Shown: piece after piece, positions 43,835 through 61,989 of the stretch | Layout of the letters: each line of letters starts with the position of its first letter | Position numbering within the stretch: the stretch's first letter is position 1 | Assembly: GCF_010093815.1 (NCBI RefSeq) | Contig: NW_022985553.1 | Location: 251,511 to 315,510 of the forward strand | From: Pseudovirgaria hyperparasitica | Lineage: Eukaryota > Ascomycota > Dothideomycetes > Acrospermales > Acrospermaceae | Direction: 5' to 3' | Length of the DNA stretch: 64,000 bases | Notes under the pieces: model-generated | Databases searched by the model: none | What the model was told of the DNA's origin: nothing | The model's input: the letters and a program-made list of their open reading frames with translations, nothing else | Position numbers and translations under genes: made by a program

Positions 43835-44315
43835 GGCGAGTGGACGGCGAGGGGGGAAGCTGGTGAGTCCAGCACACGCTGGACGAGAGGCTGTGGCTAC
43901 ATATTAGAAGAACACAACAGAGGCAGAGCGGCACGGGTGTGTTCGTTTGGGTAATCGATTAGCCAGCAGCCTGCTACCGGATCGTATGATCGACAGTGTA
44001 TTAACTGTTTATTACGTCGACAAAGCCGTCCAGGGACTCGGGATCCGTCCGTCCCGCAAGCCATCGGGTGCTTCGGCGGGTTAGCGCACGTAGTTCTGGT
44101 ACCGTGTTGGTGCATGGCAGACTGGGCTTGACACGTGATGATGCTGATATCATGGCACATGATGGCGGGCAGGGCATCGACGTCTTCTTTTGTTTTGCAA
44201 GCTCATGGGGAGTGAATATAGGGCGAAGAGTCTTCGTTTGGGCTTGCATGCGTCCGTCGCGTCGAATGATCGGCTGCCAAGACGCATCATGGACGACAAT
44301 TGGCAGACATGAAGC
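43835..44315. other. Divergent promoter region
   Basis: About 480 bases between the minus-strand esterase and the plus-strand GH2 gene. No gene seen. It must hold both promoters; I see no distinctive motif. Confidence 0.5.
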
Positions 44316-46639
44316 ATGAAACAGCGGGGCTCCCTCGTCTTTGTCTCAACAACATCTACGACAACGACCACCTCACTCCGTTCATCATCACCACATCCAT
44401 CGTCAACCCGACCGCGACTCACCTTCCCCGATATGTATCCCCGTCCAGATTTTGAGCGAACGGGCCTGCGCTGGCAGTCCTTGAATGGAGACTGGGACTT
44501 TCTCTTCGACGACGAGGACGTCGGCCAGAAGGATCGCTGGTTCGATCTGGGTCTGCCCGCCTACGTTGACTTGACGGGCATTGGGGCCTCAAATGACAGT
44601 CAGTTCTCCGAAAGCGAGTCCATCACTCGCAAGATCACAGACGGCACGCAGAGCGCCATCGAAGGCAACTTCAAATCGCAAAAGTCCGCCGTCACCAGGA
44701 ACAGTCTGCAAACGATCAAAGTGCCGTTCGTCTTCCAGTCGCCTGCATCGGGCCTCAACGAGCGCGGCGTCCATGAAGTCATGTGGTATCAGCGCGAAAT
44801 CACCCCTCCGATCAGCGAGGACGAGATCAAGTCCGGCGACAGGCTCCTGTTGCGCTTCGGCGCCGTCGACTACGACGCCAAGGTCTGGGTAGCTGGCCAG
44901 TATGTCGGCGGTCATCGCGGCGGCCATGTCCCGTTCGACCTCGACATCACCGATGCAGTCGCCTCGTCCGACGCGAACGCGCCCGTCCCCATCATCGTGC
45001 GTGTCTACGACTCGGCGTACGATCTGACCCAGCCGCGTGGGAAGCAGTACTGGGGTGCCAAACCCGAGAGCATATTCTACACGCCCTCAGGGGGGATCTG
45101 GCAGAATGTATGGCTCGAGACCGTCACCTCGTCGAGAATTGCAGACAGCTCCAACGGCACCGTCATCCGCTCCAACGACATTGATAGTGGGAAGCTGCAC
45201 GCCTCGATCGCTGTCGCCGGTCGCAAGGCGGGGTTCCCCTACCATGTTGAGATTGAGGCATCTCTCGCAGGAGTCCCGGTGTCGAAATCTGAAGCGCTCA
45301 AATTGCCGCGTGAGAAGGACAATGTTGAGGGTACATTGAGCCTACGCCTGTCGGGAGAGCAGATCTCCAAGCTACCAGAGACCCTTACCAGCTCAGCCCC
45401 GCTTGACGATGCCCGGGCGTGGAAGGATGGCGTTGCTTTGTGGTCGCCAGAGTTTCCATCGCTCTACGACCTGACCATCCGGCTGTTCGATGACTCGGGG
45501 GAGACCAAGCTGATTGACGAAGTCAAGACTACCACAGGCATGCGGTCGCTCGACTGGACCAGCGGCAACGGCGCGCTAAACCTGAACGGCAGGCCGTACT
45601 TTCAAGCCCTCTGTCTCGACCAGGGATACTGGCCAGACACGTTCATGACACCGCCATCCCCGGAGAGCCTCAAGGCCGATATAGAGCTGGCCAAGGCCAT
45701 GGGCTTCAACGGCTGCCGCAAGCACCAGAAGGTCGAGGACCCCATCTTCATGTACTGGGCCGACCGTCTGGGCTACCTCGTCTGGGGCGAGATGGCCAAC
45801 GCATACCAGTTCAGCGCCCAGTACGTCGACCGCTTCAACCAGGAATGGCTCGAGTCGGTCAAGCGCGACATCAACCATCCCAGCATCGTGACCTGGACGC
45901 CCGTCAACGAGAGCTGGGGCTACACCGACCTGCAAGCCAACCTCGAGCAAAGAAACCACATCCGCTCCCTCTACTACCAGACAAAGTAAGCACACCCTCC
46001 CCTCAGCCCCCCTTATTCTTCTTAACACCCCTCCTCAACAGAACCCTCGACCCATCCCGTCCAATCAACGACAACTGCGGCTGGCAACACGTCCTCACCG
46101 ACCTCTCCACCTTCCACGACTACTCCGACTCGCCCGCCCTCGCAGAAACATGCTCCTCCCTCGCCGGCATCTTCAGCCCCAAAGCCAACCGCCCCGTCTG
46201 GCTCCCCGCCATCCCGCCCCACGACCCAGGCTCCGCCCACGTCCCCGGCGCCCCCATCATCTGCACCGAATTCGGCGGCGTCAACATCGCGCCCGCCAAG
46301 GGCGCAGAGGACAAGGAGTGGGGCTACACCACCGCCGCCGACCCCAGCGACCTGCTTGCGCGGATTGAGAAACTCGTCCTTGCTGTTGTCGAGGGCGGGC
46401 ATTGTTCTGGCTTTGTGTGGACGCAGCTGTGAGTAGGCTTCTGGTCTTGTGATGCGTGGACTGAACTGAACTGAACTGACATTCTTGTGTGTGTGTGTGT
46501 GTGCAGGTCGGATATCGAGCAGGAGACGAATGGGCTCTATGCGTTTGATCGGACGCCCAAGTTGCCGGCTGCGGAGGTGAGGGCTGTTATGGAGAGGGCG
46601 CTGGGGGTGTTTTATGGGAACTCCAAGGAGGTGGCGTAG
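44316..46639 (+). CDS. Glycoside hydrolase family 2, intracellular
   Basis: Exons 44316-45985, 46042-46428 and 46507-46639 give 729 residues. A second in-frame ATG at 44433 gives 690 residues and removes a Ser/Thr-rich leader, so the start is uncertain. The N-terminal sugar-binding and immunoglobulin-like domains contain RWQSLNGDWDF and NVWLETV. The (beta/alpha)8 barrel contains GMRSLDW, NGRPYFQ and GFNGCRKHQK. The catalytic acid/base is Glu532 in PVNESWG, and the nucleophile is Glu633 in CTEFGG, both as in GH2. There is no signal peptide, so it should act inside the cell, perhaps on imported or internal glycosides; beta-galactosidase, glucuronidase or mannosidase activity cannot be separated by eye. 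The third exon is reached through an intron ending in an 18-base TG tract. Confidence 0.9.
46486..46503. repeat. (TG)n tract adjoining a 3' splice site
   Basis: Nine TG units followed directly by CAG, the acceptor of the last GH2 intron. It serves in place of a pyrimidine tract. Confidence 0.9.
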
Positions 46640-48012: not shown

Positions 48013-49486
48013 CTAATCCCTGAAAAGAAATGCTGCAGACAGGGTCCTGCTCTCCGACACCCAAGGGTCTATGATATCTTGCTCAAACCGCATGCATCCC
48101 TGGATGTAAGACGCCTTGCCCTGTCTGCTATATGAACTGTTGTTACCTGCGCAGACTCTGGTAAGCCAACGGACCACCGGGTCGATAGAAAACCGGAGCC
48201 TTACATCTATCCCATAGAGCAGTCCAGATCCCCTCACAATCCGGTGAGCCAGGGTCAAAGTCGCTGTTGTTCAAAGTACAGCCTGGTAGCCAGCTCGATT
48301 GTTGAGTGTAAGAGAGATCCGGATGGTTCACGTAATCCATCTGAAGTCTCCATGCTCTTGACTGCAAAACTTCATCGGCGCCACCTGGTCGTATCAACCG
48401 CTCTTCTTTCGGAACTTGGGCTCTCTGCTGACATGCAGACCTTGTTAAGTTTCTAGCGTCCTGTCGTGTCAGGGTGATGTTGTAAGTGCTTGGTCGGCAT
48501 GACCATCGGGGGTCCGGGTTTGTAGTACACTCGGGGTGGTAGGAGTATTCGATACATCCGCGTGACAGTGTGCCGCCTATCATCATGAGTTTGGTGGTAG
48601 GACGAGATAATCCGGGGTCTGGTAGTTACCGTGGCCACCATTCGTACTTGAATGCAGAATCTTGTAAGCCGCCACGCAGCTATCTCCGCCTATCTCAAAT
48701 CGAGTCCCGTATTTGGTACCGAAGCTGTCGCCTAGGTGCGGATTGCCGATTCCGCCACAGTCCTTTTTCCACGCCAGTTCAAGGACGTGCCGGAGCCCGT
48801 ATTCATGATCCAGAACCGTGGTGAATCGGGATTCAGGGATGAGGATTGGGAACGTCGTAGGGTCGGACCCGCAGGCGCTTTGGGTGAATAGTTGAAAACG
48901 AGGTGACGGGAGACCTGCATTGCAAGGCCCATCAGGGTTGAAGTGCTCCTGTAGACAGTCGGGGTGATAAGTGAAATTGAGTCCGCCTGTCGAGAGAAGA
49001 CCTCCTACGCCTTGGTAGCATATCCGTGCAAAGACAACAGCATGACCGTGGACGTACCCCTCCCACCGTTCGGACCTGTGAGACGTCAGCAAGCCGAGCC
49101 ACTGCCATTTCATCGTAAGACTTACATCCACTCATCAGCCTCCGAACACTACTCAGACAAGAATCTCGAGTTAGGAGCACAGGGGTCCCACAGTCCGACC
49201 CAGGAAGCACACGAAATGTATGAGCTATGCCCGCAGAGTCTTTCGTGAATTCATCATGGTACATGCGCGTTACGGGCTTGGTGATTTGGACTGCAACATC
49301 GGTACAGAATTGTTCTGCATAAGCGCCGAGGCCCTGGACGTCCGGAGATCCCTCGCAGCGTTGCGGAGCATCGCATTGCAGGATTTCAGTCATGTTCGGA
49401 TTACATCTGCGTTCCATCATGGAGTATGCTGTAGTGTAACAAAGCACACTCATATAAACCGTGAGCTTGAACATCAGGCACGCCAT
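48013..49486 (-). CDS. Secreted protein of three repeats, unknown function
   Basis: Five exons, 49486-49126, 49075-49058, 49004-48630, 48576-48205 and 48146-48013, give 419 residues. All introns are 50-58 nt and GT..AG. A signal peptide (MACLMFKLTVYMSVLCYTTA) is followed by three units spaced 125 and 129 residues apart. Each has a Cys (about 111, 236, 365) starting a helix-like stretch (DSCLSSVRRLMSG, DSCVAAYKILHSS, PDCEGIWTALWDR). Each then has a Gly-rich turn and a [G]GC/GG[IML]x[YF] strand: GGLNFTYHPDC, RGCIEYSYHPEC, QGCMRFEQDI. Units 1 and 2 share an NGGxGG turn and YHP(D/E)C. Phase-1 introns split the same Cys codon (T|GT) in units 1 and 3, and sit in the same Gly turn in units 1 and 2. 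The second exon is 18 nt. The Cys pattern resembles motifs in other fungal secreted proteins; I know no function. Confidence 0.7.
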
Positions 49487-51819
49487 CAGGAGGTTAGCAG
49501 TGCTGGTTGCGAAAACGTTGGAACAGTAGAGGGAAACTCCAAGATACTTGGGGTGAAACGAAGTGATATTCGAGGAATTGATCACATTGCATCAAGCTTG
49601 GTGCCACTAATTGACTTGGAATGTAGTTTGAGACGCATTTGAGTCTGATATCTGCCAGTTCCTTGACAGGACCGAGTACGGGTGGTTTTGAAACATCATA
49701 TAGTCCTCTGTTTGTAATGCAGCCGTTCAGCAGCCAGCGAGCACCGGGATTAGGATGACTGAACTCTAGCCAGGATGCTACAATGAGCGCCACTTGCGGT
49801 GCCATGAGATAGCAAGGCTGGGCAAAGATATAAGAAACTCCCCTTGCGTCGAGATGCCTCTTTCACTGTGCCACCGCCCAGGAATGCTAGCGTGTGAACG
49901 TAGTTGGCCGCTTGCACCTCCAAACTCGAATGGTAGCACAAGGACTTACAAAGTACGATCATATGGTGAGTATATACCGATTGTTATGTCTGTGCGAGTT
50001 GTCCTGTGTCGGTTCCTATCGCCTTGCTAGCATGTCCTGGAAATGGTTCAGTCAGCTTCTCCAGTATTGATACCGGCGGAAAAGAGAGGTCTAACTCCAA
50101 GTCCGGGTCGATTCAGGTAGTATTTGGCGAAATAGGAATATGAATAGTGTTGTCTTGGGAGTCATTGCCAGAGCGACGAGGTTCTCGAGGTAAATGCTAT
50201 CCCAAATGAAACGTGAGCCTAGCAATGTCGATGAAGTCAGCGCCATCATCAAAGATAACGATAAATATCACCACATCAGCCACCTTATTACAGCTGCAAT
50301 CAGTTCTTGGTCGTTGTGGTGTGACAAGTGCTTATAATACCGAAGCAGATATGTGTCAATGTGCGGTCCAAAGTAACCCCTGGTTATGCCTTGACTTACA
50401 CACTACTTGTTTCTTTAAAGGTAATAAAGATGTAGGTCTTGTCTACTTTTGCGACGCCTTCTGCCTTTCTTAGACTTGCAGCAGCTATTACCTCCTGAAA
50501 TTTGACTGCAAGAAGAGCAGATGATACTTACATGATGCTCTTCGGGATCGGCCAACAAGGCTCTCTGTCAGGAACATACGCCATGTTATGACTGGTCTTG
50601 GTCTTTTCCGCAGCTTCGACCAATCAAGTTGGGCATGGGCGAGAGTTTCAAAATGTGTGAGCGGAGAAAATGTGTGGCATGGCCGCAATTCCTAGTATTC
50701 TGGGATCATCCTGGGACATCGAATGCGTCCCTTAATCTTCGCTCATGACGCCGCACTAACGACGCCGCACTAACGATGCCACAATCTTCTATGCCATAAC
50801 ATGATAATGGATCGAGACTTTATTCGATAGTTGTAATCATTGTGATTTGTGGGTACGTCGCCATATAACGCTTCAACACCTAAGATTATAGCGAGCCTGT
50901 CCAATGTTAGTGACGCAAGTCAAGATAGTGCCACTTCAAACGAATGACCCAGGTAGTCGGTGCTTGTCAATTTCGAACAACTCATGCGAGGTCCCTCTAA
51001 CGCTGTCAACCGTAGTATTGGTAAAGTGGTGCAAAATGCCAGGCGATCACACTGACCTTCTGGTCCTGTTGTGATCATACAAGGTCTGTGTAAAGGGTTA
51101 GACTTCTCCCGGTACAGAACAAGTCTAAGATACAACACGTTCCTGGGCAGGACTCGTCACAATCGATGGACAGTCCAAGAGACTGGCAGTGTCGCACATA
51201 CAATTGATGAGCGAACGTTCCATAAAAGTCTGAGGTCGCGTTTTTCCATTTTGAAATAGTTGTGCATTTGGAGCTAAGTCTGTTTCGTGACTAGCGTAGG
51301 CAATCCTTGTGGGGCGGGGATGTCCGGTGGGAACACGATTAATTACTCATTACAACAGGCGTCTACCTACTAATTACTTGTCTGCAACGTATGGAATGAA
51401 AAATGCTGCTCGGCCACCATCAATCAAGATCTCACGATTCATAATATGAACCATGAGACCCTGCTCTCAAGGACATCTGATGTCCAGTTCTCGCGTTGCC
51501 TTGTGTATCGTCGCATATGGATATTCTCAGTCTGCGATTCGATGAATTATGTCTCAATTCCGTAGCGTCGATATCTGCTTACGTGTGCTTATGGAGAAGT
51601 CGATCTTCGCTGTCTATTATAACATGGCCCAGATCTATTGGCATACAGCCTTGGCGTGGAAAACTGCTGGCCTCGAAAGCATCAGCCGAGCAAGGAGAGG
51701 CTGATCATACGAGGGATTAAAATACCCCTCGTATTTAAGATGACGTGACAATCTATGGTACGCCAGATACTTCTATAACGTTCATCTTCCACAGCTCGAC
51801 GCGAGTATCACCACTGACA
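49487..51819. other. Unresolved region and left border of the cluster
   Basis: A minus-strand frame at 49494-49805 (ALIVASWLEFSHPNPGARW) and hydrophobic fragments near 50210-50290 on the same strand do not assemble into a gene that I recognise and may be remnants. The rest has only short frames. A direct GACGCCGCACTAAC duplicate lies at about 50749-50775. The promoter of the methyltransferase, with its inverted repeat, is at the right end. Confidence 0.4.
51707..51748. promoter_or_regulatory. Inverted repeat plus TGACGTGA upstream of methyltransferase
   Basis: ATACGAGGG (51707-51715) and its exact reverse complement CCCTCGTAT (51726-51734) are separated by ten A/T-rich bases. TGACGTGA, a CRE/bZIP-like element, starts at 51741, and the methyltransferase ATG is 72 bases further on. 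The arrangement looks like a dimeric operator next to an activator site. Which protein binds is unknown. Confidence 0.45.
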
Positions 51820-52650
51820 ATGGCGGTCACTGAAATTGTTGCTGATGCTTGGGGCAAGACTGGATCTGGTTATGCTAACGTCACGGAGAAAACCACTGCC
51901 AAGGCTGCACTGCGGCTCATACAAGAGCTCGAAACCCTCAAGCCTTTGTCCATTGCGAACGGCATTGTACTCGACAACGGATGTGGAACAGGAGCCACCG
52001 CCATGGCAGTCCGATATCAATCAGCAGATATCCCAATATTGGCCACCGATATCAGTCCTGGCATGCTCGACATCCTTGACAAGAGAGAAATTCCTGGAAT
52101 CCGTACCCGCGTCGCCGACGCGCTCGATCTCAGCGTTTTGGAAGAAGATGGTGTCGACAATCATTTCAGCCATGTGCTGAGTACATTCATGATCCAATTC
52201 ACACCGGATGCCACGAAGGCTGTAGCAGAGATGTATCGCGTCTTACAGCCTGGAGGAGCTTTTGGTCTTGCGACATGGATTGAGGTGGAAATCGTTACCA
52301 AAATCAATGAGGCAGGCAAAGCACTCGAGCCTCAGTGGAAAGCCCCTAACATGTTTGCTTCGAATTGGCCCACGACCGTTTCTGAGGTCCAAGTAAAAAT
52401 GGAAGAGCTTGGATTCGTCGACATCCATACGAACGTGACTCGCGCTGACCTGGACTCTCCGTTGGAACTCTTACTCGATTACACATATAACGGAAACCAC
52501 CCGAGTGCTGTTGAGCAGATCAGGTATTGGGAGGAGCAAGGCAGACTGAAGGATTTCAAGGCCGTGTATGAGAGAAGTTTAGGAAACCTGTACGCAAAGG
52601 GACACAGATTGTCACTTCGATATATGCTCACTACCGCACGAAAGCCCTAG
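51820..52650 (+). CDS. Class I SAM-dependent methyltransferase
   Basis: One exon, 276 residues from the ATG at 51820. An upstream in-frame extension lacks family character and would run through the promoter element. Motif I, LDNGCGTGA at 51-59, binds S-adenosylmethionine. ATDISPGMLDIL carries the acidic residue (Asp) that contacts the ribose. RVADALDL and YRVLQPGGAFGLATW are motifs II and III of small-molecule (UbiE/type 11-like) methyltransferases. The acceptor is not evident. It converges on the MDR reductase gene, with only 125 bases between the stops. Its position fits methylation of an oxygen or nitrogen on a pathway intermediate (inference). Confidence 0.9.
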   Translation: MAVTEIVADAWGKTGSGYANVTEKTTAKAALRLIQELETLKPLSIANGIVLDNGCGTGATAMAVRYQSADIPILATDISPGMLDILDKREIPGIRTRVADALDLSVLEEDGVDNHFSHVLSTFMIQFTPDATKAVAEMYRVLQPGGAFGLATWIEVEIVTKINEAGKALEPQWKAPNMFASNWPTTVSEVQVKMEELGFVDIHTNVTRADLDSPLELLLDYTYNGNHPSAVEQIRYWEEQGRLKDFKAVYERSLGNLYAKGHRLSLRYMLTTARKP

Positions 52651-52775
52651 TAAGCACTAAGATAGTCCAAGAATCTTCATACTGCTACTCTGACGACGAG
52701 ATCTACAATGACAGAGCGTGCTTACTACGAAGCCATAAGAGAGAACGACTTGCACTTCTTCTTTCTGGCCGGAGC

Positions 52776-53888
52776 TTAAAGTTCCACGACCAGCTTTGTT
52801 GCACTAACACCCGCTTTGCACTTCTGTAGTGCCTCATCAATAGACTCCAATCCCACACCGACGACACTCGGAGGAGGTAAGCATTGCAGCTTCCCAGATT
52901 CCAATGCCCCTGTAACATAATCCTGCCAAACAGGCGTTGCGATATCATTGACTGCAAAGATCATTCCAGCCTCCACGTCTTTCGGGATGTTCGGCGGCGG
53001 CGGATGAACACATGCCAAATGTCCTCCACCTAGTTTCTCCAGAATGACCAGGTCATCTTTGTACGTCTCGAATGTAGATACGGCGTCGAATATTCCAATA
53101 AAGGATTCGGGAGACCCCTTGACAGCTGCAACGACATCTTCTACGAATGACCCATCATGATAATCGAAGACGTCTTTAGCACCGCATGATCGGCATAATT
53201 CAAAGTTCTTCTTGCTAGCGATAGCTATGACTCGCACTCCTGCTGCATTGGCAAGCTGAGTTGTCATGCTCCCAACAGATGATGAGCCGCCGTAGACAAC
53301 AAGGGTTTTGGTCATAGGTTTCGCAGTCAACGATGGATACGGGAGTCGTAGCGCCGGTGTTTGTATACCTGGCATAGCAAATCCAGGCTTATCGAGCGAA
53401 AGGGCGCAGACCGCTGCTTCAAGGGCGAAAGGTACGACGACGCCAGATGTGAACGAGATTTGTGGCGGCAGAATGGCTGCTTTGGTGGCCAGGACGATAC
53501 AGTACTGGGCGTATGCTCCGTCTTGAGGACGACCGGTCACCAGGCTGACTGCATGGCTATGCGGAACTTGTCAGTCGTTGTGCTATCCGAAAGAGAAGTC
53601 CTTGTGGAAAGAGGAATGACTTTACCCAATGACACGATCTCCCCTCTTGAAGCGACCTTGAGCTTCGGAGCCGACTTGATGGACAACACCCGCCACATCG
53701 CATCCGAAAATTGTAGGCCACTGCTGGACAAAAACGCCAGAGTCTTGCATATGGCAGTCTAAGGGGTTGATAGCAACAGCGTGGTTATGAATCACAAGCT
53801 CGTTCGAGCCGGCAATAGGCATTGGCGCATCCGACACTGACAGAGGAGCTCCAGCTTTCTTGAGCCATGCAGCTTTGTTGGTTGTCAT
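52776..53888 (-). CDS. Zinc-free MDR reductase (enoyl/quinone-reductase-like)
   Basis: Exons 53888-53626 and 53556-52776 (69-nt intron) give 347 residues. The N-terminal GroES-like fold shows HAVAINPLDCHMQDSG and PTIFGCDVAGVV. The zinc-binding Cys/His-Glu residues of true alcohol dehydrogenases are absent. The NADPH-binding loop VVYGGSSSVGS at about 174-184 is typical of fungal trans-acting enoyl reductases and related oxidoreductases found in metabolite clusters. GAKDVFDYHD follows, as in the family. It would reduce an activated double bond or carbonyl in the cytosol. It is transcribed away from the OrsD-like gene from a shared roughly 350-base region. There is no PKS in the window for it to partner with, so a role on an isocyanide intermediate is possible but unproven. 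Confidence 0.88.
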
Positions 53889-54239
53889 CTTGAAAGGTAT
53901 TATGGAATATTGGACCGATTCGAGAGGTTTGGCGTAAGACTGAGTGGAGGACTATAACATTGTGCATTATGCATAGGATACAAGGCCATATATATGCCTC
54001 GATCTTCATTAGTGAGCTCCTAAGCTACAATCCCGGTATTTGGAAATCTGATATCGAAGTCTGTCTTGTTAGCTGCCTGTGTACGGAATTCAAGTATGGG
54101 AATCCAAAATCCTTGCTTACGTTCCCGCTACTGAACAATCAGCCGCGGTAGAACTAACCTTGAATAGGAAAGTAGTGCGACACCACGTAAAGTGGTCAGT
54201 CATCAAACTCAGTCGTCACTGACATCTTCCCACTCACCG
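53889..54239. promoter_or_regulatory. Shared promoter of the reductase and OrsD-like genes
   Basis: A 351-base divergent intergenic region. It contains a CCGCGG palindrome at 54143-54148, a TATATATG stretch near 53990 and a TGCATTATGCAT palindrome near 53963. I cannot assign binding proteins. Confidence 0.45.
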
Positions 54240-55748
54240 ATGCCTCCTTTATCCAAAACTGTCGATTATCTGCAATACGATGACCAGCATCGGGTGTTGA
54301 TCTGTACGAAATGTTCATATGCCATCCAGAAAAGCGCAATTGATAGCCATCTGCTTCGGCATAAGATCTATCGTGCTGCGAGGCACGAACTCGTCCGCGC
54401 TGCATCACAATTAGACATCTTAGAGCCGGAAGATGTTTCCCTGCCCACGCCTGGCAGTGGTCCCATTGTAGGCTTGTCAATCATCGATGGATACAAATGT
54501 GCATCGCCAAGATGTGGAAGCTTGTTCGCCAGCGTCAAACGTATGAGACGTCATTGGACTGAAGATCACAACAATGTACAGGTTCCACAAGAATTCGCCT
54601 TGTCCGTGCAGCTGCAGACATTCTTCCGTGGTACCAAGTTGAAGTACTTCCAGGTTGACTCCCTGTCCATGATGAATCCAAAGGAACAAGATTCACCCTC
54701 TGGAAGCGCTAGCCGCCCAAAGCTTCCAAACGATGTGAACCTAGATCATATCAATGATTTCCATCATTACAACATTCATACAAGTAACAGTATGCCCGCC
54801 GTTTCTTGGGTAAAGGATCTTCCTGCGCAAGCACTATATACACCAATACTGATGAATGGGATGCTTGCCATCGCAGTGGCCCATAAGATACTGATCGAGT
54901 CAGACCTGGGCCTCAACACGGAATTAGAGCTCTTTCGATACTACTCCTACTACGTTACCATACAGAACAGACAAGACGACGATACTGACGCAACAAGGAT
55001 GCAAACCATGAAGAAGCTCAGAGCACTTTGCATGCTTTGCTCCTGGTCCGTCGATACTATTACAGTTCCATCCACGAAACGCATGGTGATGCCGACTGTA
55101 GACGTCCTATCTATCATTACGTGTATGGAAGACATGATTGGAGAACCCACGATCTCGAATGCGAAGGCCGGGCACCTGTTTCCTCTCACCGCAATCCTCG
55201 AGACCGTGACTTCAATTGAAGATCCTGTATACGCGACTCTCAGCGTTCGAAATGTGGACTGCAATTTTGCAGACTCCCACCCCATCGGATTTTCTACATC
55301 AACTCTCAACAAGGTCTCTTCACGTGAAGATATACCTCCGGCCATAGCAAGATCCATTGGCAGTCTTCCAATGCGTATGCGAGAGGTTTTTGGGAAGCCG
55401 AGCGAGATCAAGGACGTCTTGGCTTCGCTGTCCGCCATAAATGCACTTGAGGAATGCATAGCCCTCTACTTCACTTGCCAAGGGGAAGATCATCATGTAG
55501 CATGGCAGGCTCTGTTATCGTGGATTGGCAGAATGTCTATGCACTTCCGAAACTTGCTCGCCAAAAACAACCCAGCCGCACTGGTTATATTCACGCATTG
55601 GTTATTGCTTGTCAGACTGGCAGAAAAACATTACTGGTTTCTCAAAGGGTTGGCTTCGTCATTGTTGGCCGCCGTTGAGGAGCACCTGGGGGCTCTGAGT
55701 CCGGCACATCAACTCATTGAGTCCGTGATCACCCTGATTATCACATGA
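54240..55748 (+). CDS. OrsD-like zinc-finger protein, candidate pathway regulator
   Basis: One exon, 502 residues from the ATG at 54240; an upstream GTG-initiated extension is not a valid start. Two zinc-finger-like modules lie at the N-terminus: C22-x2-C25-x10-H36-x3-H40 (ICTKCSYAIQ) and C86-x4-C91-x12-H104-x4-H109 (CASPRCGSLF, then RRHWTEDH). This pairing, with DYLQYDDQHRVLICTKC before it, is the hallmark of the OrsD family (PF12013), first named from the orsellinic-acid cluster of Aspergillus. The remaining 390 residues are helical and Leu-rich, like the middle region of fungal transcription factors. OrsD-type proteins recur in clusters, but their biochemical role is poorly defined. A DNA-binding regulator is the natural reading. 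Confidence 0.85.
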   Translation: MPPLSKTVDYLQYDDQHRVLICTKCSYAIQKSAIDSHLLRHKIYRAARHELVRAASQLDILEPEDVSLPTPGSGPIVGLSIIDGYKCASPRCGSLFASVKRMRRHWTEDHNNVQVPQEFALSVQLQTFFRGTKLKYFQVDSLSMMNPKEQDSPSGSASRPKLPNDVNLDHINDFHHYNIHTSNSMPAVSWVKDLPAQALYTPILMNGMLAIAVAHKILIESDLGLNTELELFRYYSYYVTIQNRQDDDTDATRMQTMKKLRALCMLCSWSVDTITVPSTKRMVMPTVDVLSIITCMEDMIGEPTISNAKAGHLFPLTAILETVTSIEDPVYATLSVRNVDCNFADSHPIGFSTSTLNKVSSREDIPPAIARSIGSLPMRMREVFGKPSEIKDVLASLSAINALEECIALYFTCQGEDHHVAWQALLSWIGRMSMHFRNLLAKNNPAALVIFTHWLLLVRLAEKHYWFLKGLASSLLAAVEEHLGALSPAHQLIESVITLIIT

Positions 55749-56229
55749 ATGGGTAATTGGACATGCACAAATGTCTACTGTGCGTCTGCATAGCATCCAT
55801 ATACAGACCGGGGACATAATACAAAGACTACTAGTAAGGTTCTGCTGAAGATGTCTCCAATGCCGAGGAGTCACTTGGGATGGGAGTCGAGGACAACGAA
55901 CGCAATACACAACTCATACTAGCCGCGAGGAACCAAGACAAGGATACAGACAAGAACTTGTCAGGCCTTGAAGTGGACACATCCAAGACGGATGATTGCG
56001 CCCAAGACTGTAAGTGATCTCATGAAGGACTCTAGGCTTGAATTGATTGTAAAGATACCGGAAAATTCTTGATACTCGAGTCAGAAAGATTTTACAACGC
56101 AATAAACACACTTTTCCAGTACAAGAAAAACCAACCCTATAAACACAACGAAACTGTGCAACTAAAATTAGAACCCATATTCTACATCCGTCATGATACG
56201 ATGCCACAGCTGTCAGCTCTGAGATTCCA
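55749..56229. other. Intergenic region between convergent genes
   Basis: About 480 bases between the stops of the OrsD-like and isocyanide synthase genes. No gene seen. Confidence 0.6.
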
Positions 56230-58238
56230 TTAATCGACATGAATCCTCCACAGCTCTCGATCCGCGCCCGACTTGAAGGAGCTTCTGGTATGCATCATTC
56301 CAACATTGTCACTAATCAGCAGATCGCCCTGTTGCCACGAGTGTCGATAGCATACTCTACGATCATGCAGTAGACTTTCCAGGATGTCGCAAGTAGATTG
56401 AGGTCCGTTGTCAATTGTGACGATGGTTGGATCGAACCGCGTCTTCTCTTGTGGCCACCGCTCATGGTATTGCAAGCATGGTAGTCCAGTCTCTGGGTGT
56501 CTAGTCACAAGCTTGAGTCCCTGCATGACAGTCTGATCGAATGACTTTGTTGACACCGACCACGTCAATCGCTCCAACTGCTCCAGTGAAATCTCAGCTG
56601 GGAGATTTTGGAACAGCAACCGCGATGCGGAAAAGAGAGTAAAGCCGGTGTTTTTTGGTGAGGGCGTGACAGCCGTGAAGAATTGAAACTTCGGCGGTTG
56701 TGGAACGACTCGCAGAGTTCCGTCAGGTTCTTCCACCTTTTCGGTCTTGAACAAGCCATCGAAGTGGAATGGCATCCATTCTTGCGATAAAACGTTGTTC
56801 AATCCTCCACTCTCCGATCCTTTGTCCTTGACCTCAAGCACCAGACCAAATTTCCACTTTTGTGGCTTGCCAATTTCGGACGCTTTATCAACAAAGAGAT
56901 CCCGGTTTCGTGTTCCATTGAAGCCTCGAACAATCACAGGAGAGTTCTGCTCAGCTAGCTTGCGCAACTTCAGCCCTGGGACATCTTGCATTGATAGCTT
57001 GGCACCTGTAGTAGGTCGGATGATGAGGCCACACGGATATTGATGTTCGAACACCACCTTGGCGGTCCCCCAATCGTACAATGGTGACTTTTGGCGGAAA
57101 TGTGACAGGTGTCCAGCTTCCTCAACCAATTCAAGATCTGGATCTTGCTCAAAGCTATGTCGAGGACCAGCCCGAATCGAGCCATCTACGTTTATAGCAA
57201 TGCAAGTGTGCCATGGTGTTACTGTAGTCGTCGTCAAGGGAAGTGTGTTGATCGAAATTTTGTCCTCTCCAGTCGACGGATGGATAGAAAGTCGAATGTG
57301 CTGGGGGAAGTTCTCTCGGACAGCTTTGGCAAAGGCCTCACCTCTCCTCAACATAGCCTTTGCGATCTTCTCGATTCCTTTCTTATATCTACTCTTGCTC
57401 AAGTTTTCGCCAACCACATGCTGCGTGGCCAGATCTGTCTGTAAGAATTTCAGATACCCGCAATATGTCAATAGCCTGTTCTCATCTTCTTTCAACGACT
57501 CCGGTTTCAAGTTCTCCCAGGCCGGACGGCCGAACTTGTTCATTAAAGCCAAGCGGACACTTGACGCTGTTGCTTGATATGACATCTCGTCCATGTCCTC
57601 TTCTAGTATGTCCATGCCCAAGAGATCCTTCAGTCGAGCAAATTCGATGTTGGTGTACCCGCGACTTGCAGCGATGGCTCTCAAGTGCTGCCCATATGAC
57701 CACACAGTCTTGTCTGGTACTCCCAACAGATCTATGGTCGATTAGCGATGGTATATTATGACAGTAGTATATCCTACTTACCATTGTAGACAAGACCATC
57801 AGACACTATGGAAAGCTTTGCGCCAGGCTCGTGGATATCGGCAATGGCATCACACATCCCATTGAGATGAGCCAGAGCAAGCTCCTCTCCTTTATCTGGA
57901 AGAACACCCAAAACTTTGCTCTCACTGTTGGGGGACTTGAATGGAAATGCCGGAAGTGCGAGAGCGATAGGTTTGTTGTGTTTGATGTATCGATATATGA
58001 TGGATAAGAATGTCAAAGCTCCTTCATCGCTCCTATCTTCCACGTTCGAAGAAAGCGGGCATCTATACCGATAGATGATATCGAGGATTGCTTTTGCTTT
58101 GGAGAAGAGGTCATCGGAAAAGGTACCTGTCTGCGGACTTGGCGAGTCCTGTACAGCTAATTCTGAACTGATGAGACCCGGCATGTTGATATTGTCGTTG
58201 TTGAGATAGGACGAGAGATTTGTTCGAAACATCGCCAT
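56230..58238 (-). CDS. Isocyanide synthase fused to Fe(II)/2-oxoglutarate dioxygenase
   Basis: Exons 58238-57782 and 57731-56230 (50-nt intron) give 652 residues. The N-terminal half is a DIT1/PvcA-type isocyanide synthase: LPAFPFKSPN (95-104), a VLPDKGEELALAHL block (112-125), PGAKLSIVSDGLVYND (138-153) and LLGVPDKTVWSYGQHLRAI after the splice. This domain converts an amino-acid amine to an isonitrile using ribulose-5-phosphate. The C-terminal half is TauD-like: the iron-binding H475-x-D477 lies in MPFHFDGLF, the distal His633 in MMHTRS, and Arg644 or Arg648 can bind 2-oxoglutarate. Bacteria use separate PvcA and PvcB proteins; fungal XanB-type enzymes fuse the two. Dityrosine-forming Dit1 is the yeast relative. 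The start is the first ATG after an in-frame GTG. This is the core enzyme of the proposed cluster. Confidence 0.92.
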
Positions 58239-60229
58239 CAATCTCTGATGCACTCTTAATATATGCCATCTTCATCGAAGCAGTCGCAACCTGCGGCCGT
58301 ATCCCATCTCTTGCAGACTTTTCGTGCCCCTCTGGCATGCCCCTCTCGCCGCGTCAAAGTTTCATCGCCCTGGTGGCCAAGGTGGGCTCCTTCAACCATG
58401 CCACCTTCTTTGTTCAGGCATTACGCCGACCATTGCGTGCCCCCATGAGATATCGGGACATCGGAATATCCAATCCGGAGACTTTCTGAAAGCGACTTTG
58501 AAGGCTTCGTCCTCTCACGACGCCATTAGAACGTCTACGAGTCCGGAAATAATTGGTCTACGATTCAGGCAGGATCCTTGACTCAGGCAGAAATCTTGAC
58601 TCAGCATTGCCGGTTTTGTCTGAGTCGTCGAATGTGGATAGGCTGGACGAAACGGGCCGTATATGGTCGCCCGGCACGGGACGTTCGCACGCCTTCATCC
58701 ATGGATCATATTCGTCTAGCGTCGCTCCTTCTGTCTGTCCCTGTCACGCCACACAGTAAAGGTGATATCATCATGAATTCAGGACTATTCTTGGAATGAA
58801 TCGATGTTCGAAAAAGTGGCTTGGTGTACACCAACTGAGCCACTTAAAATGAGCTCGATACTCGGTTTCGAACGCCACTGTTGACCTCCCGGGATCAGGG
58901 ATTTATCGCTGAAACGTTGTAGACACTATAATCTATCACTATTTGGCTCTTCTAGCAATTCTTCGTGCAATGAATTTGCTCAATACGAACAGTCTATGTG
59001 GGCATTCTTACCCCCACGAGATATAGGGGCATGATAGAATAACACCCACCTTCTCCAAGTGCGACCATCCAAGAAGGTCGACGAGCTTATCTGTACTACG
59101 AGTGTCATTAGAGCTTGAGAAGCCTCTACCCAGTGTGTCTGATGGTAGTTCAATCTATGATGCTTGGCGATCAGTGATTGCGCCGAACATACGAACTTCC
59201 TCTCGACCGAGATAAAATGAAATATTCAAAGCCACTCCACGCAATAATAACGGGTCCCAGAAGGTTGAAGGCTAAGCTAACCTTTGATTTTGTAGCAGTG
59301 CTCCAGCTCTCGGAAGTTACCGATGCACGACCAGACATGTTGAGCCGTGCGTCGGTACATTATTCAACCAGATGAACCTAGAAAACATGGAGGGGCGGTA
59401 GTGTCCGCAGCCTTCATCCCAGTACCGCCCATGATTCGATATCGTCATAATGTGCAAGCCTTGAGCGCCTGAAACTCGGTCCTTGGCGTCATGGCGTCTC
59501 CTCTCACGATTCGAGCCACAGAGCGAAGCTGTGGAGTGGCAACCTGCAGCCCTATCCCTCGGCAAGCATCTTGATAGCCGGAATTTGCATTGAGGGCCCA
59601 CCTGAAACGTGAACATTACGTGCATTAGCCTGTACTATTACCTGTATGAGGTGCGATCCGTCCCTCTTGGATGCCATAATGCCCCACACAAACGGCTAAC
59701 GGCCGACAGCCTTGATCAGGAAGCTGACGCTGACGTAGAGTGGATTTCGTCTGCTGTTGCGCTCATGTTCCTATTGGATCTCTCAGTCGCAAAAGCTATA
59801 TCAGGTATACCGAGCCCAATAGACTTTGCAAAGCTCCCTTGCTACTCCCCTCGGTCAGTCTGATCAGGGTCTTATCAGGGTCTGGACTTGACGCCCGGGG
59901 TGGATCTGGCTCGTGCATATAGGACATGAAGACGTATGAGTGAGACAGTATAGAACTCTCGACCAAATCTTCTTAGTTCTCCGGGTAGCGTGTCTTTAGA
60001 GTGGGCTCGTGGCTGTGTTGAAGCAGTACCATATTCGCCGTGTCCCGAGCCCGTGTAGTGTACAACATACCATCAGCAACCGGCAAAAAGTAGACGAGGA
60101 AGACTCAAACTGGAAAATTCTGATCCTCGTGTCGGTTCTTTCGTAGCAAAAAAATACTCATAAGTAGTAAGGTGCAGGATGTCGTGGCTCATCCAAAGCG
60201 CAAAGCACTTGCTCAGTCCCACACCTACA
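58239..60229. other. Intergenic region between divergent cluster genes
   Basis: About 2 kb between the isocyanide synthase and the flavin monooxygenase. Short frames only, none recognisable. It contains a strong hairpin at 58814-58845 (listed) and TGACTCAGGCAG-type duplicates near 58565-58610. An in-frame ATG at 60179 could add 17 residues to the monooxygenase. The spacing could hide a lost or very short gene. Confidence 0.5.
58814..58845. repeat. Hairpin with tRNA A-box-like sequence
   Basis: AAGTGGCT pairs with AGCCACTT across a TTGGTGTACACCAA palindrome. Read on the minus strand it contains TGGCTCAGTTGG, matching the tRNA A-box consensus, and a TTCGAA about 30 bases on. No complete cloverleaf forms. 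It may be a tRNA relic. Confidence 0.6.
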
Positions 60230-61989
60230 ATGACAAGAACAACAACCGAAACAGTCGATATCGTGATCGTAGGAGGTAAGAGAAGTAGCCTCCTACTTGT
60301 ATCCAGTATGTGCTAACACACGAAACAGGCGGCCCAACAGGTCTCCTCTCTGCCTTCCTCGCACGTCAGCTCGGTCTCAGCATCGCCGTCCTCGACTCTA
60401 AAGATAGCACACTCACAGTCGGACGCGCAGACGCCCTCAACGCACGCTCACAGCAATATCTCGAAGTCGCCGGTGTCTTAGAAGAGCTCCTGCCCAAAGG
60501 CATACGGTGCAACAGTATGTCGACACACCCCTGTCATGTCCCATAGCCAGACTCTAAATCCTCCTCGTAGCAAGCACAATATTTGCCGATGGCGAATTCA
60601 AGTCTCGCCAGAGTCACTGGTGGAACAGTCTCACGCATTGCTTCCATAACAACTTCCTCATGGTCGGCCAGCCGGTCGTGGAGGCCGTCCTTGCATCACA
60701 TCTCGACTTCCCCATCCACTTCTCCGAGCCCGCAGTATCTTTCTCCGAGTCTGACGAAGGTGTAACGGTGCGTACTGCGAAACGGACAGTACAGGCAAAG
60801 TACCTCATCGCATCAGACGGCGCGCGATCTGCAGTACGCACAGCGCTGGAAATTCCGTTCGAGGGGACAAAGCCGAATATGACGTGGGCCGTGCTGGACA
60901 CATTCATAGACACAGACTTCCCGGTCTGCAGTGAGATTATTACGTTCCAACTGGATGGGCAGAGCAGGATATCCTGGATTCCCAGGTATGTCAATGTCTG
61001 CACAGAGATGGGTGGGGAGTAGCTTACAAGAAATAGAGAGCGTGGTATGGCACGGTTCTATGTGCTTCACGACGATGAGATCACACAGGAGAAGACTGAA
61101 GCATCAATTCGCAAGCACATGGCGCCATATCGTATCGATTTCGTTGAGACGGAGTGGTTTAGCAAGTTCGAAAGTAAACACCCATTGCAGTCCACGCACC
61201 ACCATCTCTTGAGCATATGCGCTGATACACCGTAGTCAAGGAGCGAATCGCCGAAACATTCGTATCGAAATGCTCCACAGGTCGTATCATCCTCGCTGGT
61301 GACGCCGCCCACGTCCAGTAAGTCCCACCTCGATCTTGGACGTCCATTGCTAATGAGCTCTCTGTAGTTCCGTCAACGGTGGCCAAGGCCTGAACACAGG
61401 TATTGCTGACGCCTTTTCCCTGATATGGCGCCTCAAGATGTGCCTTTCCCCGAGTACTTCCCCTACAGCCAAAGCCAGGATCTTGCAGAGTTATAATACC
61501 GAGCGTCACAGTGTCGCCCAAGAAGTGATAGACATTGCGGCGAAGCTCGTTCGAAAGACGATTACGGAGGCGAAGGACTACGTGGCGGTCATTGAGAAGA
61601 ACGCTGGATATATAACAGGTATGGGCGTGAATTACGCCGGCATCGGGTCGGCGATGATTAAGGATTCGGAGACCGGGTTGTTTAAGGCTGGAAATCGTAT
61701 GCCAGACCTCTGGGTCAAGACGGCGGGTAAGGATCATGAGCGCCTGTACTCGAAGTTTTCATATGGGCATTTTGTGATGGTGAGGATAGGTGGAGGAAAG
61801 GGTGTGGAGGTGCCGAGTGAGGTAGAGGTTGTTACTGTCGGTCCGTCGAAAGAGCCAGGAGAGAGCGCGCTTTCGGCGTCCTGGGTACGTCAAGAGGATA
61901 GATATGTCGTCGTCGTAAGGCCGGACATGTACGTTGGATATGTTGGATCCGAGAGAGAGGGGTTGGAGTACCTGAGAGCATTGTATTAG
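60230..61989 (+). CDS. Class A flavin monooxygenase (aromatic hydroxylase type)
   Basis: Six exons, 60230-60275, 60329-60514, 60571-60985, 61037-61173, 61236-61317 and 61368-61989, give 495 residues, or 512 if the in-frame ATG at 60179 is used. Splicing assembles the FAD motif VGGGPTG (14-20), a DG motif ASDGARSAVR (Asp160), and the second FAD motif LAGDAAHVHSVNGGQGLNTG (GD at about 283-284). This is the FAD_binding_3/PheA-TfdB layout with a thioredoxin-like C-terminal domain, ending in VVVVRPDMYVGYV. Such enzymes hydroxylate phenols and other aromatic rings with NAD(P)H and O2. In the cluster it could hydroxylate a tyrosine-derived vinyl-phenol isocyanide (inference). Every intron is 50-62 nt and in frame, and the motifs join perfectly across junctions, so the model is well supported. 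Confidence 0.9.

What the first reader, a model, noticed from the sequence alone, without database searches (positions are those of the whole stretch)
51820..61989. Compact isocyanide biosynthetic cluster without PKS/NRPS
Seen: five adjacent genes encode a methyltransferase, a zinc-free MDR reductase, an OrsD-like zinc-finger protein, a DIT1/PvcA isocyanide synthase fused to a TauD-like dioxygenase, and a class A flavin monooxygenase. Established: isocyanide synthases form the core of fungal clusters such as the xanthocillin (xan) cluster, and rule-based cluster finders built around PKS/NRPS cores have often missed them. Inferred: this gene set (OrsD-like regulator and flavin hydroxylase, no P450 in view) is a variant I do not recognise and may make an unknown, perhaps copper-binding, isocyanide. 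Five of the genes fall in about 10 kb with divergent and convergent pairs.
Basis: partly seen in the sequence, partly recalled or inferred. Interest (0 to 1): 0.85.

Follow-up and report, generated by a model that had tools for sequence, protein, structure and literature searches.

The report
Fungal isocyanide cluster with phenol hydroxylase
A fungus carries five intact neighbouring genes that look set to turn an amino acid, probably tyrosine, into a reactive isocyanide and then hydroxylate its ring; the hydroxylase belongs to a rare enzyme branch that, in the bacteria searched here, was found only beside isocyanide-making genes.

Summary
Five intact genes fill 51820-61989: methyltransferase (MT), LovC-like MDR reductase, OrsD-domain protein, isocyanide synthase (ICS) fused to a TauD dioxygenase, and class A flavin monooxygenase (FMO). 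No Pfam domain was detected in the flanks scanned, and no P450 was found within 270 kb.

(1) The FMO belongs to a rare subfamily that travels with ICS. Eight of 80 bacterial ICS loci carry it directly behind ICS and TauD. FMO-only searches found it in 7 genomes, all with ICS and TauD upstream (4 of the 7 already known from the ICS scan). It forms one clade with the fungal FMO (support 100/100) and keeps the phenol-hydroxylase Asp/Arg/Tyr triad (9 of 9 linked, 0 of 20 unlinked FMOs).

(2) The OrsD protein is a chimera: OrsD fingers joined to an effector domain homologous to that of Zn2Cys6 regulators in the same genome, so probably the pathway regulator.

The TauD domain has vinyl-isonitrile-type marker residues. 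Best reading: tyrosine, isocyanovinylphenol, isocyanovinylcatechol, then methylation and reduction. Copper binding is unsupported, no shared promoter motif was found, and fungal relatives could not be searched. It is a new variant of a known kind.

The parts
51820..52650 (+). SAM-dependent methyltransferase, 276 aa, one exon; nearest solved relatives are UbiE/COQ5-type fungal small-molecule methyltransferases (5jgj) and RoqN
52776..53888 (-). MDR reductase, 347 aa, exons 53626-53888 and 52776-53556; nearest solved relative LovC, then quinone oxidoreductases
54240..55748 (+). Probable cluster regulator, 502 aa: N-terminal OrsD fingers (about residues 10-111) joined to a C-terminal effector domain homologous to that of Zn2Cys6 regulators in the same genome
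56230..58238 (-). ICS-TauD fusion, 652 aa, exons 57782-58238 and 56230-57731; iron ligands H475, D477, H633; R648; selectivity markers K481 and H575
60230..61989 (+). Class A flavin monooxygenase of the ICS-linked, phenol-hydroxylase-like subfamily, 495 aa, exons 60230-60275, 60329-60514, 60571-60985, 61037-61173, 61236-61317, 61368-61989; triad D50, R216, Y224
53889..54239 (.). Shared divergent promoter region of the MDR and regulator genes
   Evidence: gene models; no motif found in it that the other promoters share
58239..60229 (.). 2 kb region between the divergent ICS-TauD and FMO genes, no Pfam domain detected in six frames

Best explanation
This is a five-gene biosynthetic cluster whose core is an ICS, TauD and FMO module. 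The ICS domain joins the amine of an aromatic amino acid, most likely L-tyrosine, to a carbon of ribulose-5-phosphate to make the isonitrile acid. The fused Fe/2OG domain removes CO2 and desaturates, giving 4-(2-isocyanovinyl)phenol rather than the isocyanoacrylate. The FMO hydroxylates the phenol next to its OH, giving the catechol. The methyltransferase and the LovC-like reductase finish the molecule, probably by O-methylation and by reduction of an alkene or quinone. The OrsD chimera regulates the cluster. Shown by sequence: intact genes, families, catalytic residues, linkage of the FMO to ICS and TauD in bacteria, and the chimeric build of the regulator. Inferred: the substrate, the site of hydroxylation, the order of steps, the roles of MT and MDR and their place in the pathway, and the regulation.
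For: ICS half aligns with isonitrile synthases 9dhm and PvcA, TauD half with PIsnB and PvcB; near-invariant residues mostly kept. K481 and H575 match the vinyl-isonitrile rule of PMC9467999 (residues). FMO: 8 of 80 bacterial ICS loci carry it directly behind TauD at 40-45% identity; linked FMOs score 315-374 bits, the best unlinked one in the same genomes 118; 7 of 7 genomes found by FMO-only search have TauD and ICS upstream, as has the one plasmid record found; clade 100/100 with the fungal FMO. Its closest solved relatives are VibO, phenol hydroxylase and 3-hydroxybenzoate hydroxylase, and it keeps D54, R281 and Y289 of phenol hydroxylase (9 of 9 linked, 0 of 20 unlinked). Regulator: C-terminus z 13.7 and 12.7 against two Zn2Cys6 proteins, OrsD part z 0.3 and 0.4.
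Against: No promoter motif is shared by the four promoter regions. MT, MDR and OrsD have no counterpart in 80 bacterial ICS loci, so they belong by position only. The vinyl-type rule covers only part of the family: 42 of 76 TauD proteins fit neither type, and 1 of the 8 FMO-linked loci (L047) has the isocyanoacrylate pair LC; single mutants in the paper did not switch the product. In the TauD half 8 of 33 near-invariant residues differ. The fungal ICS does not group with the FMO-linked bacterial ICS. A Pfam scan of the regulator itself finds only OrsD, no fungal regulator domain. No hydratase or transporter domain was detected beside the cluster.
Confidence: 0.6

Rival explanations
1. The FMO does more than hydroxylate: it dearomatises the phenol and starts ring contraction or epoxidation, giving cyclopentenyl isocyanides like the Trichoderma isonitrins.
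For: Class A FMOs can dearomatise phenols (recalled). Isonitrin A and isonitrinic acid E are listed as fungal isocyanides (PMC5974471 figure legend); that they derive from tyrosine by ring contraction is recalled. The reductase would suit a non-aromatic intermediate (inference).
Against: Closest solved relatives include simple phenol ortho-hydroxylases with the same Asp/Arg/Tyr triad. No paper found links an FMO to such compounds (listings).
Confidence: 0.15
2. The ICS-like domain makes N-formyl-tyrosine, as argued for yeast Dit1, and the cluster makes formamides, not isocyanides.
For: Dit1, called similar to isocyanide synthases, is argued to make formyl tyrosine and not an isocyanide (PMC7345447 abstract). 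PIsnB and PvcB accept N-formyl-tyrosine in vitro (PMC9467999).
Against: A TauD domain is fused to it, as in XanB; 24 of 26 near-invariant bacterial ICS columns are kept; no Dit2-like P450 was found nearby.
Confidence: 0.1
3. Only ICS-TauD and FMO form the pathway; MT, MDR and the OrsD protein are chance neighbours.
For: The three have no counterpart in 80 bacterial ICS loci; no shared promoter motif.
Against: They lie between stretches without detected domains; an MT also occurs in xan (XanE); the OrsD protein is the only OrsD match without stop codons in the genome and looks like a regulator.
Confidence: 0.2
4. The OrsD protein is not a DNA-binding regulator but a co-factor, or a relict without function.
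For: Pfam finds no fungal regulator domain in it; a single-sequence structure model was useless.
Against: Open frame of 502 aa; C-terminal homology to two Zn2Cys6 proteins of the same genome, 0 of 500 shuffles as good.
Confidence: 0.2

Closest known systems
Aspergillus fumigatus xan (xanthocillin) cluster
   Same: ICS-TauD synthase (XanB), a methyltransferase (XanE), no PKS or NRPS core (PMC5974471)
   Different: No P450 like XanG, no hydratase like XanA and no XanC motif found here; instead an FMO, an MDR reductase and an OrsD chimera
Bacterial ICS-TauD-FMO operons (for example Allokutzneria L034, Burkholderia L065 and L077, Pseudomonas spelaei L047)
   Same: Same three activities; FMOs of one clade with the fungal one
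   Different: In these 8 loci ICS and TauD are separate genes (two of the operons were not resolved cleanly by the ORF listing); no MT, MDR or OrsD; ICS of other branches. I know of no product
Pseudomonas aeruginosa pvcABCD (paerucumarin)
   Same: ICS and TauD; PvcC is a flavin hydroxylase as I recall, so the chemistry would be alike; the passages seen describe the operon and product, not PvcC's class
   Different: The window FMO has no tblastn match in the PA7 pvc locus L069; TauD markers are LC, not KH
Fungal ICS gene cluster families of Nickles et al. 2023
   Same: ICS-TauD is one of three fungal architectures, 36.2% of ICS proteins; small clusters are usual (PMC10153163)
   Different: The words FAD, OrsD, methyltransferase and monooxygenase do not occur in its main text; supplement and website not seen, so this gene set may be listed there
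VibO and phenol hydroxylase (solved FMOs)
   Same: Best sequence matches; Asp/Arg/Tyr triad shared with phenol hydroxylase
   Different: Shorter (495 aa against about 650); no isocyanide context known to me

Membership tests
Fungal ICS-TauD biosynthetic cluster | ICS domain with conserved catalytic-type residues | tested here: met
   PF05141 well above cut-off; 24 of 26 near-invariant columns kept
Fungal ICS-TauD biosynthetic cluster | Fused TauD domain with the iron ligands | tested here: met
   H475, D477, H633, R648
Fungal ICS-TauD biosynthetic cluster | Neighbouring genes share a promoter motif | tested here: not met
   no shared 8-10-mer; near-matches at control level. Only four promoter regions, so a weak test
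Fungal ICS-TauD biosynthetic cluster | Neighbours conserved together in other fungi | not testable with these tools
   no fungal genome collection; only the window's own genome
xan cluster | Dit2/XanG-type P450 in the cluster | tested here: not met
   nearest P450 match 274 kb away
xan cluster | Isocyanide hydratase in the cluster | tested here: not met
   nearest DJ-1/PfpI match 127 kb away
xan cluster | XanC motif AGTCAGCA in promoters | tested here: not met
   absent from four promoter regions
PIsnB-type (vinyl isonitrile) desaturase | K or R at PIsnB K107 and N or H at N188 | tested here: met
   K481 and H575
PIsnB-type (vinyl isonitrile) desaturase | Makes vinyl isonitrile in vitro | not testable with these tools
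   needs an enzyme assay
ICS-linked FMO subfamily (defined here) | Clade with FMOs of bacterial ICS-TauD operons | tested here: met
   100/100 support
ICS-linked FMO subfamily (defined here) | Occurs only beside ICS | tested here: inconclusive
   7 of 7 genomes of FMO-only searches linked, but only 3 are new and all of one genus, and fungi were not searched
Phenol hydroxylase-type FMO | Active-site D54, R281, Y289 (roles recalled) | tested here: met
   D50, R216, Y224
Fungal transcription factor | Effector domain homologous to Zn2Cys6 regulators | tested here: met
   Pfam does not call it directly
Fungal transcription factor | OrsD region binds DNA of the cluster promoters | not testable with these tools
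   needs a binding assay

The most novel reading that the evidence does not exclude
ICS, TauD and FMO form a distinct isocyanide pathway shared by bacteria and fungi, in which a dedicated phenol-hydroxylase subfamily that lives only beside isocyanide synthases makes isocyanovinylcatechols. In this fungus it is run by a new kind of regulator in which OrsD fingers have replaced the Zn2Cys6 cluster.
Probability: 0.45. Interest if true: 0.7.

Novelty: new variant of a known kind. Interest (0 to 1): 0.58.

Why it matters
The FMO subfamily, with 131 positions invariant in nine members and 46 of them rare in unlinked FMOs, is a sequence handle for finding a group of isocyanide pathways in bacteria and fungi. 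A catechol and an isocyanide on one small molecule would give it two metal-binding groups. The chimeric regulator suggests what the OrsD domain may do: bind DNA in cluster control, which is directly testable.

Tried and rejected
Copper control: the XanC motif (published) and two copper motifs from memory are absent from the four promoter regions. A hidden gene in the ICS-FMO gap or the flanks: none detected. Structure of the OrsD protein: single-sequence model, pLDDT 35.5, not used. Structure of the FMO subfamily from 8 bacterial sequences: pLDDT 53.1, not used, no fold search run. OrsD C-terminus against solved structures: best E 0.43, nothing meaningful. A fourth core gene in the bacterial operons: 10 neighbours scanned, ATP-grasp in 2, the rest mixed or without a family. 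Naming the organism: the one 5.8S copy found looks C-to-T mutated compared with sequences I remember (RIP-like), so I did not name it. Print on an ICS-FMO module or on OrsD as a DNA-binding domain: listings showed none by title or abstract start; subscription papers are not held. I recall a 2007 study of isnA-containing bacterial clusters (Brady and colleagues) that I could not check and that may already describe such operons.

Limits of the FMO linkage: the 8 linked FMOs were first seen in loci picked for ICS, and only the best 80 of 148 ICS relatives were kept. The FMO-only searches are the fairer test: 1 of 369, 1 of 394, 1 of 398 and 5 of 65 genomes. The single hit of each large search is the genome it was centred on. 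Of the 7 distinct genomes, 3, all of one genus, were new. One search used a bacterial FMO as query, the others the window FMO; cut-offs were 1e-60 and 1e-50, and the rows shown had at most 3-4 candidates scored per genome. Two weak FMO matches in ICS loci (L039, 128 bits, and L021, 45 bits, both 24% identity) were not counted as linked. The FMO tree used 20 of the 22 unlinked loci held; L101 and L118 gave no usable FMO frame; other unlinked matches had no locus. One unlinked row, L111, is a very long branch and shows two of the three triad letters with a gap.
Full report
What is there. The five genes exist as described, are intact, and have ordinary short fungal introns. They occupy 51820-61989. 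Six-frame Pfam scans found no family at E 0.01 or better in 46.7-51.8 kb, between ICS and FMO, or from 62.0 kb to 10 kb past the window end. A glycoside hydrolase family 2 frame lies further left (44313-45986). The genome (35 Mb, 59 contigs) has one ICS gene. The nearest P450 match on the contig is 274 kb away (92 of 147 candidates scored) and the nearest DJ-1/PfpI domain 127 kb away (distances). So neither a Dit2/XanG-like enzyme nor an isocyanide hydratase was found in the cluster.

The ICS-TauD fusion. The ICS half aligns with isonitrile synthase 9dhm and with PvcA, and the TauD half with PIsnB (7tcl) and PvcB. Of the columns at least 95% conserved in bacterial relatives, 24 of 26 are kept in the ICS half and 25 of 33 in the TauD half, the kept ones including the three iron ligands and the carboxylate-binding arginine. 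Kim et al. 2022 (PMC9467999; parts 1-3 of 5 of the text read) report that vinyl-isonitrile-forming enzymes have K or R and N or H at two positions, and isocyanoacrylate-forming ones L and C. The window protein has K481 and H575, the vinyl type. In the bacterial loci the pair reads KN in 3 of 3 Photorhabdus and 8 of 8 Serratia and LC in P. aeruginosa, as the paper would lead one to expect for rhabduscin- and paerucumarin-type enzymes. But 42 of 76 TauD proteins fit neither type, the FMO-linked loci read RN in 6, MN in 1 and LC in 1 of 8, and the paper's single mutants did not switch products. The prediction is a good lead, not proof.

The FMO is the best-linked neighbour. A scan of bacterial and archaeal genomes with an ICS alignment gave 148 relatives, of which 80 were kept. 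tblastn with the window proteins found TauD in 76 of 80, MT, MDR and OrsD in 0 of 80, and the FMO in 10 of 80: 8 at 40-45% identity directly behind TauD, and 2 weak ones that I do not count. In the 8 genomes the linked FMO scores 315-374 bits and the best unlinked FMO 118; in three ICS-bearing genomes without a linked FMO the best scores are 29, 40 and 111. FMO-only searches found members in 1 of 369, 1 of 394, 1 of 398 and 5 of 65 genomes; the single hits are the genomes the searches were centred on. That makes 7 distinct genomes, and 7 of 7 have TauD and ICS upstream; 4 were already known from the ICS scan and the 3 new ones are of one genus. A plasmid search found one record, also linked.

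FMO family and reaction. The fungal FMO and the 8 linked ones form a clade with 100/100 support on a long stem; the 8 bacterial ones group together with 99/99. Nine sequences share 131 invariant positions, 46 of them present in at most 10% of 20 unlinked FMOs. The closest solved relatives are VibO, phenol hydroxylase and 3-hydroxybenzoate hydroxylase. Aligned to phenol hydroxylase 1foh, the subfamily keeps D54, R281 and Y289 (that these are the active-site residues is recalled): 9 of 9 linked and 0 of 20 unlinked FMOs have all three. Hydroxylation of a free phenol next to its OH is therefore the most likely reaction, which favours tyrosine over tryptophan as the starting amino acid.

History. 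In the ICS tree the FMO label needs three changes among the bacteria, forced by well-supported branches, so the FMO has moved between ICS lineages or been lost from some. The fungal ICS does not fall among the FMO-linked ones; it sits on a long branch with another long branch (L088), which may be an artefact. The fungal pairing could be old or a separate joining.

The regulator. The OrsD protein has an OrsD region at its N-terminus and no other Pfam family. A search of its own genome with the whole protein found two other proteins, both through its C-terminus only. Both carry a Zn2Cys6 cluster and one the Fungal_trans_2 domain. Shuffle tests give z 13.7 and 12.7 for the C-terminal part (0 of 500 shuffles as good) and z 0.3 and 0.4 for the OrsD part. 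So the protein looks like a fungal transcription factor whose usual DNA-binding domain has been replaced by OrsD fingers. The genome has two other OrsD matches, both with stop codons.

What does not fit or stays open. No word of 8-10 bases is shared by three or more of the four promoter regions, and near-matches are at control level. The LovC-like MDR and the methyltransferase are placed in the pathway by position only. Copper control is untested. No comparison with fungal genomes was possible, so conservation of the cluster among fungi is open, and it may already be listed in the resource of Nickles et al. (PMC10153163: two of four parts of the results, the figure legends and a word search seen; supplement and website not seen).

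Known context. Lim et al. 2018 (PMC5974471; two of three parts of the results and passages seen) describe fungal ICS-TauD proteins, xan and copper control, and say that two A. fumigatus ICS clusters were missed by prediction programs. PMC8406171 (passages) gives the XanC motif. PMC7345447 (abstract and section list) argues that Dit1 makes formyl tyrosine. PMC3639982 (passages) describes the pvc operon and paerucumarin.

Verdict. A real and intact ICS-TauD cluster, a new variant by its FMO, MDR and chimeric regulator. Its strongest point is an FMO subfamily tied to isocyanide synthase in bacteria and in this fungus.

Noticed in passing
G000:C40:7541-7694 (L006, L007): The only 5.8S rRNA match reported, with its ITS and LSU surroundings, looks heavily C-to-T mutated compared with sequences I remember, as if hit by repeat-induced point mutation.
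   Followed up: no
window 48143-49862, minus strand: Overlapping cysteine-rich open frames with similar stretches repeated, no Pfam family above cut-off (one sub-threshold lectin match in this flank, E 0.076); could be a multi-exon gene of unknown family.
   Followed up: partly
L088 and L081: Two of the 76 bacterial loci with a TauD match have ICS and TauD in one open frame, as in fungi; L088 pairs with the fungal ICS in the tree, on long branches.
   Followed up: partly
TauD proteins of 76 bacterial ICS loci: 42 of 76 fit neither published marker pair for vinyl isonitrile or isocyanoacrylate, mostly pairs such as AA, VA, IA and HA, so the family may hold further reaction types.
   Followed up: no
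L033:3415-4671 and L043:7243-8472: An ATP-grasp protein follows the FMO in two of the eight bacterial operons, a hint that the product may be joined to an amine there.
   Followed up: no
G000:C10:24286-24588 and G000:C3:2309046-2309342: Two further OrsD matches in the genome, each with two stop codons in the frame.
   Followed up: no
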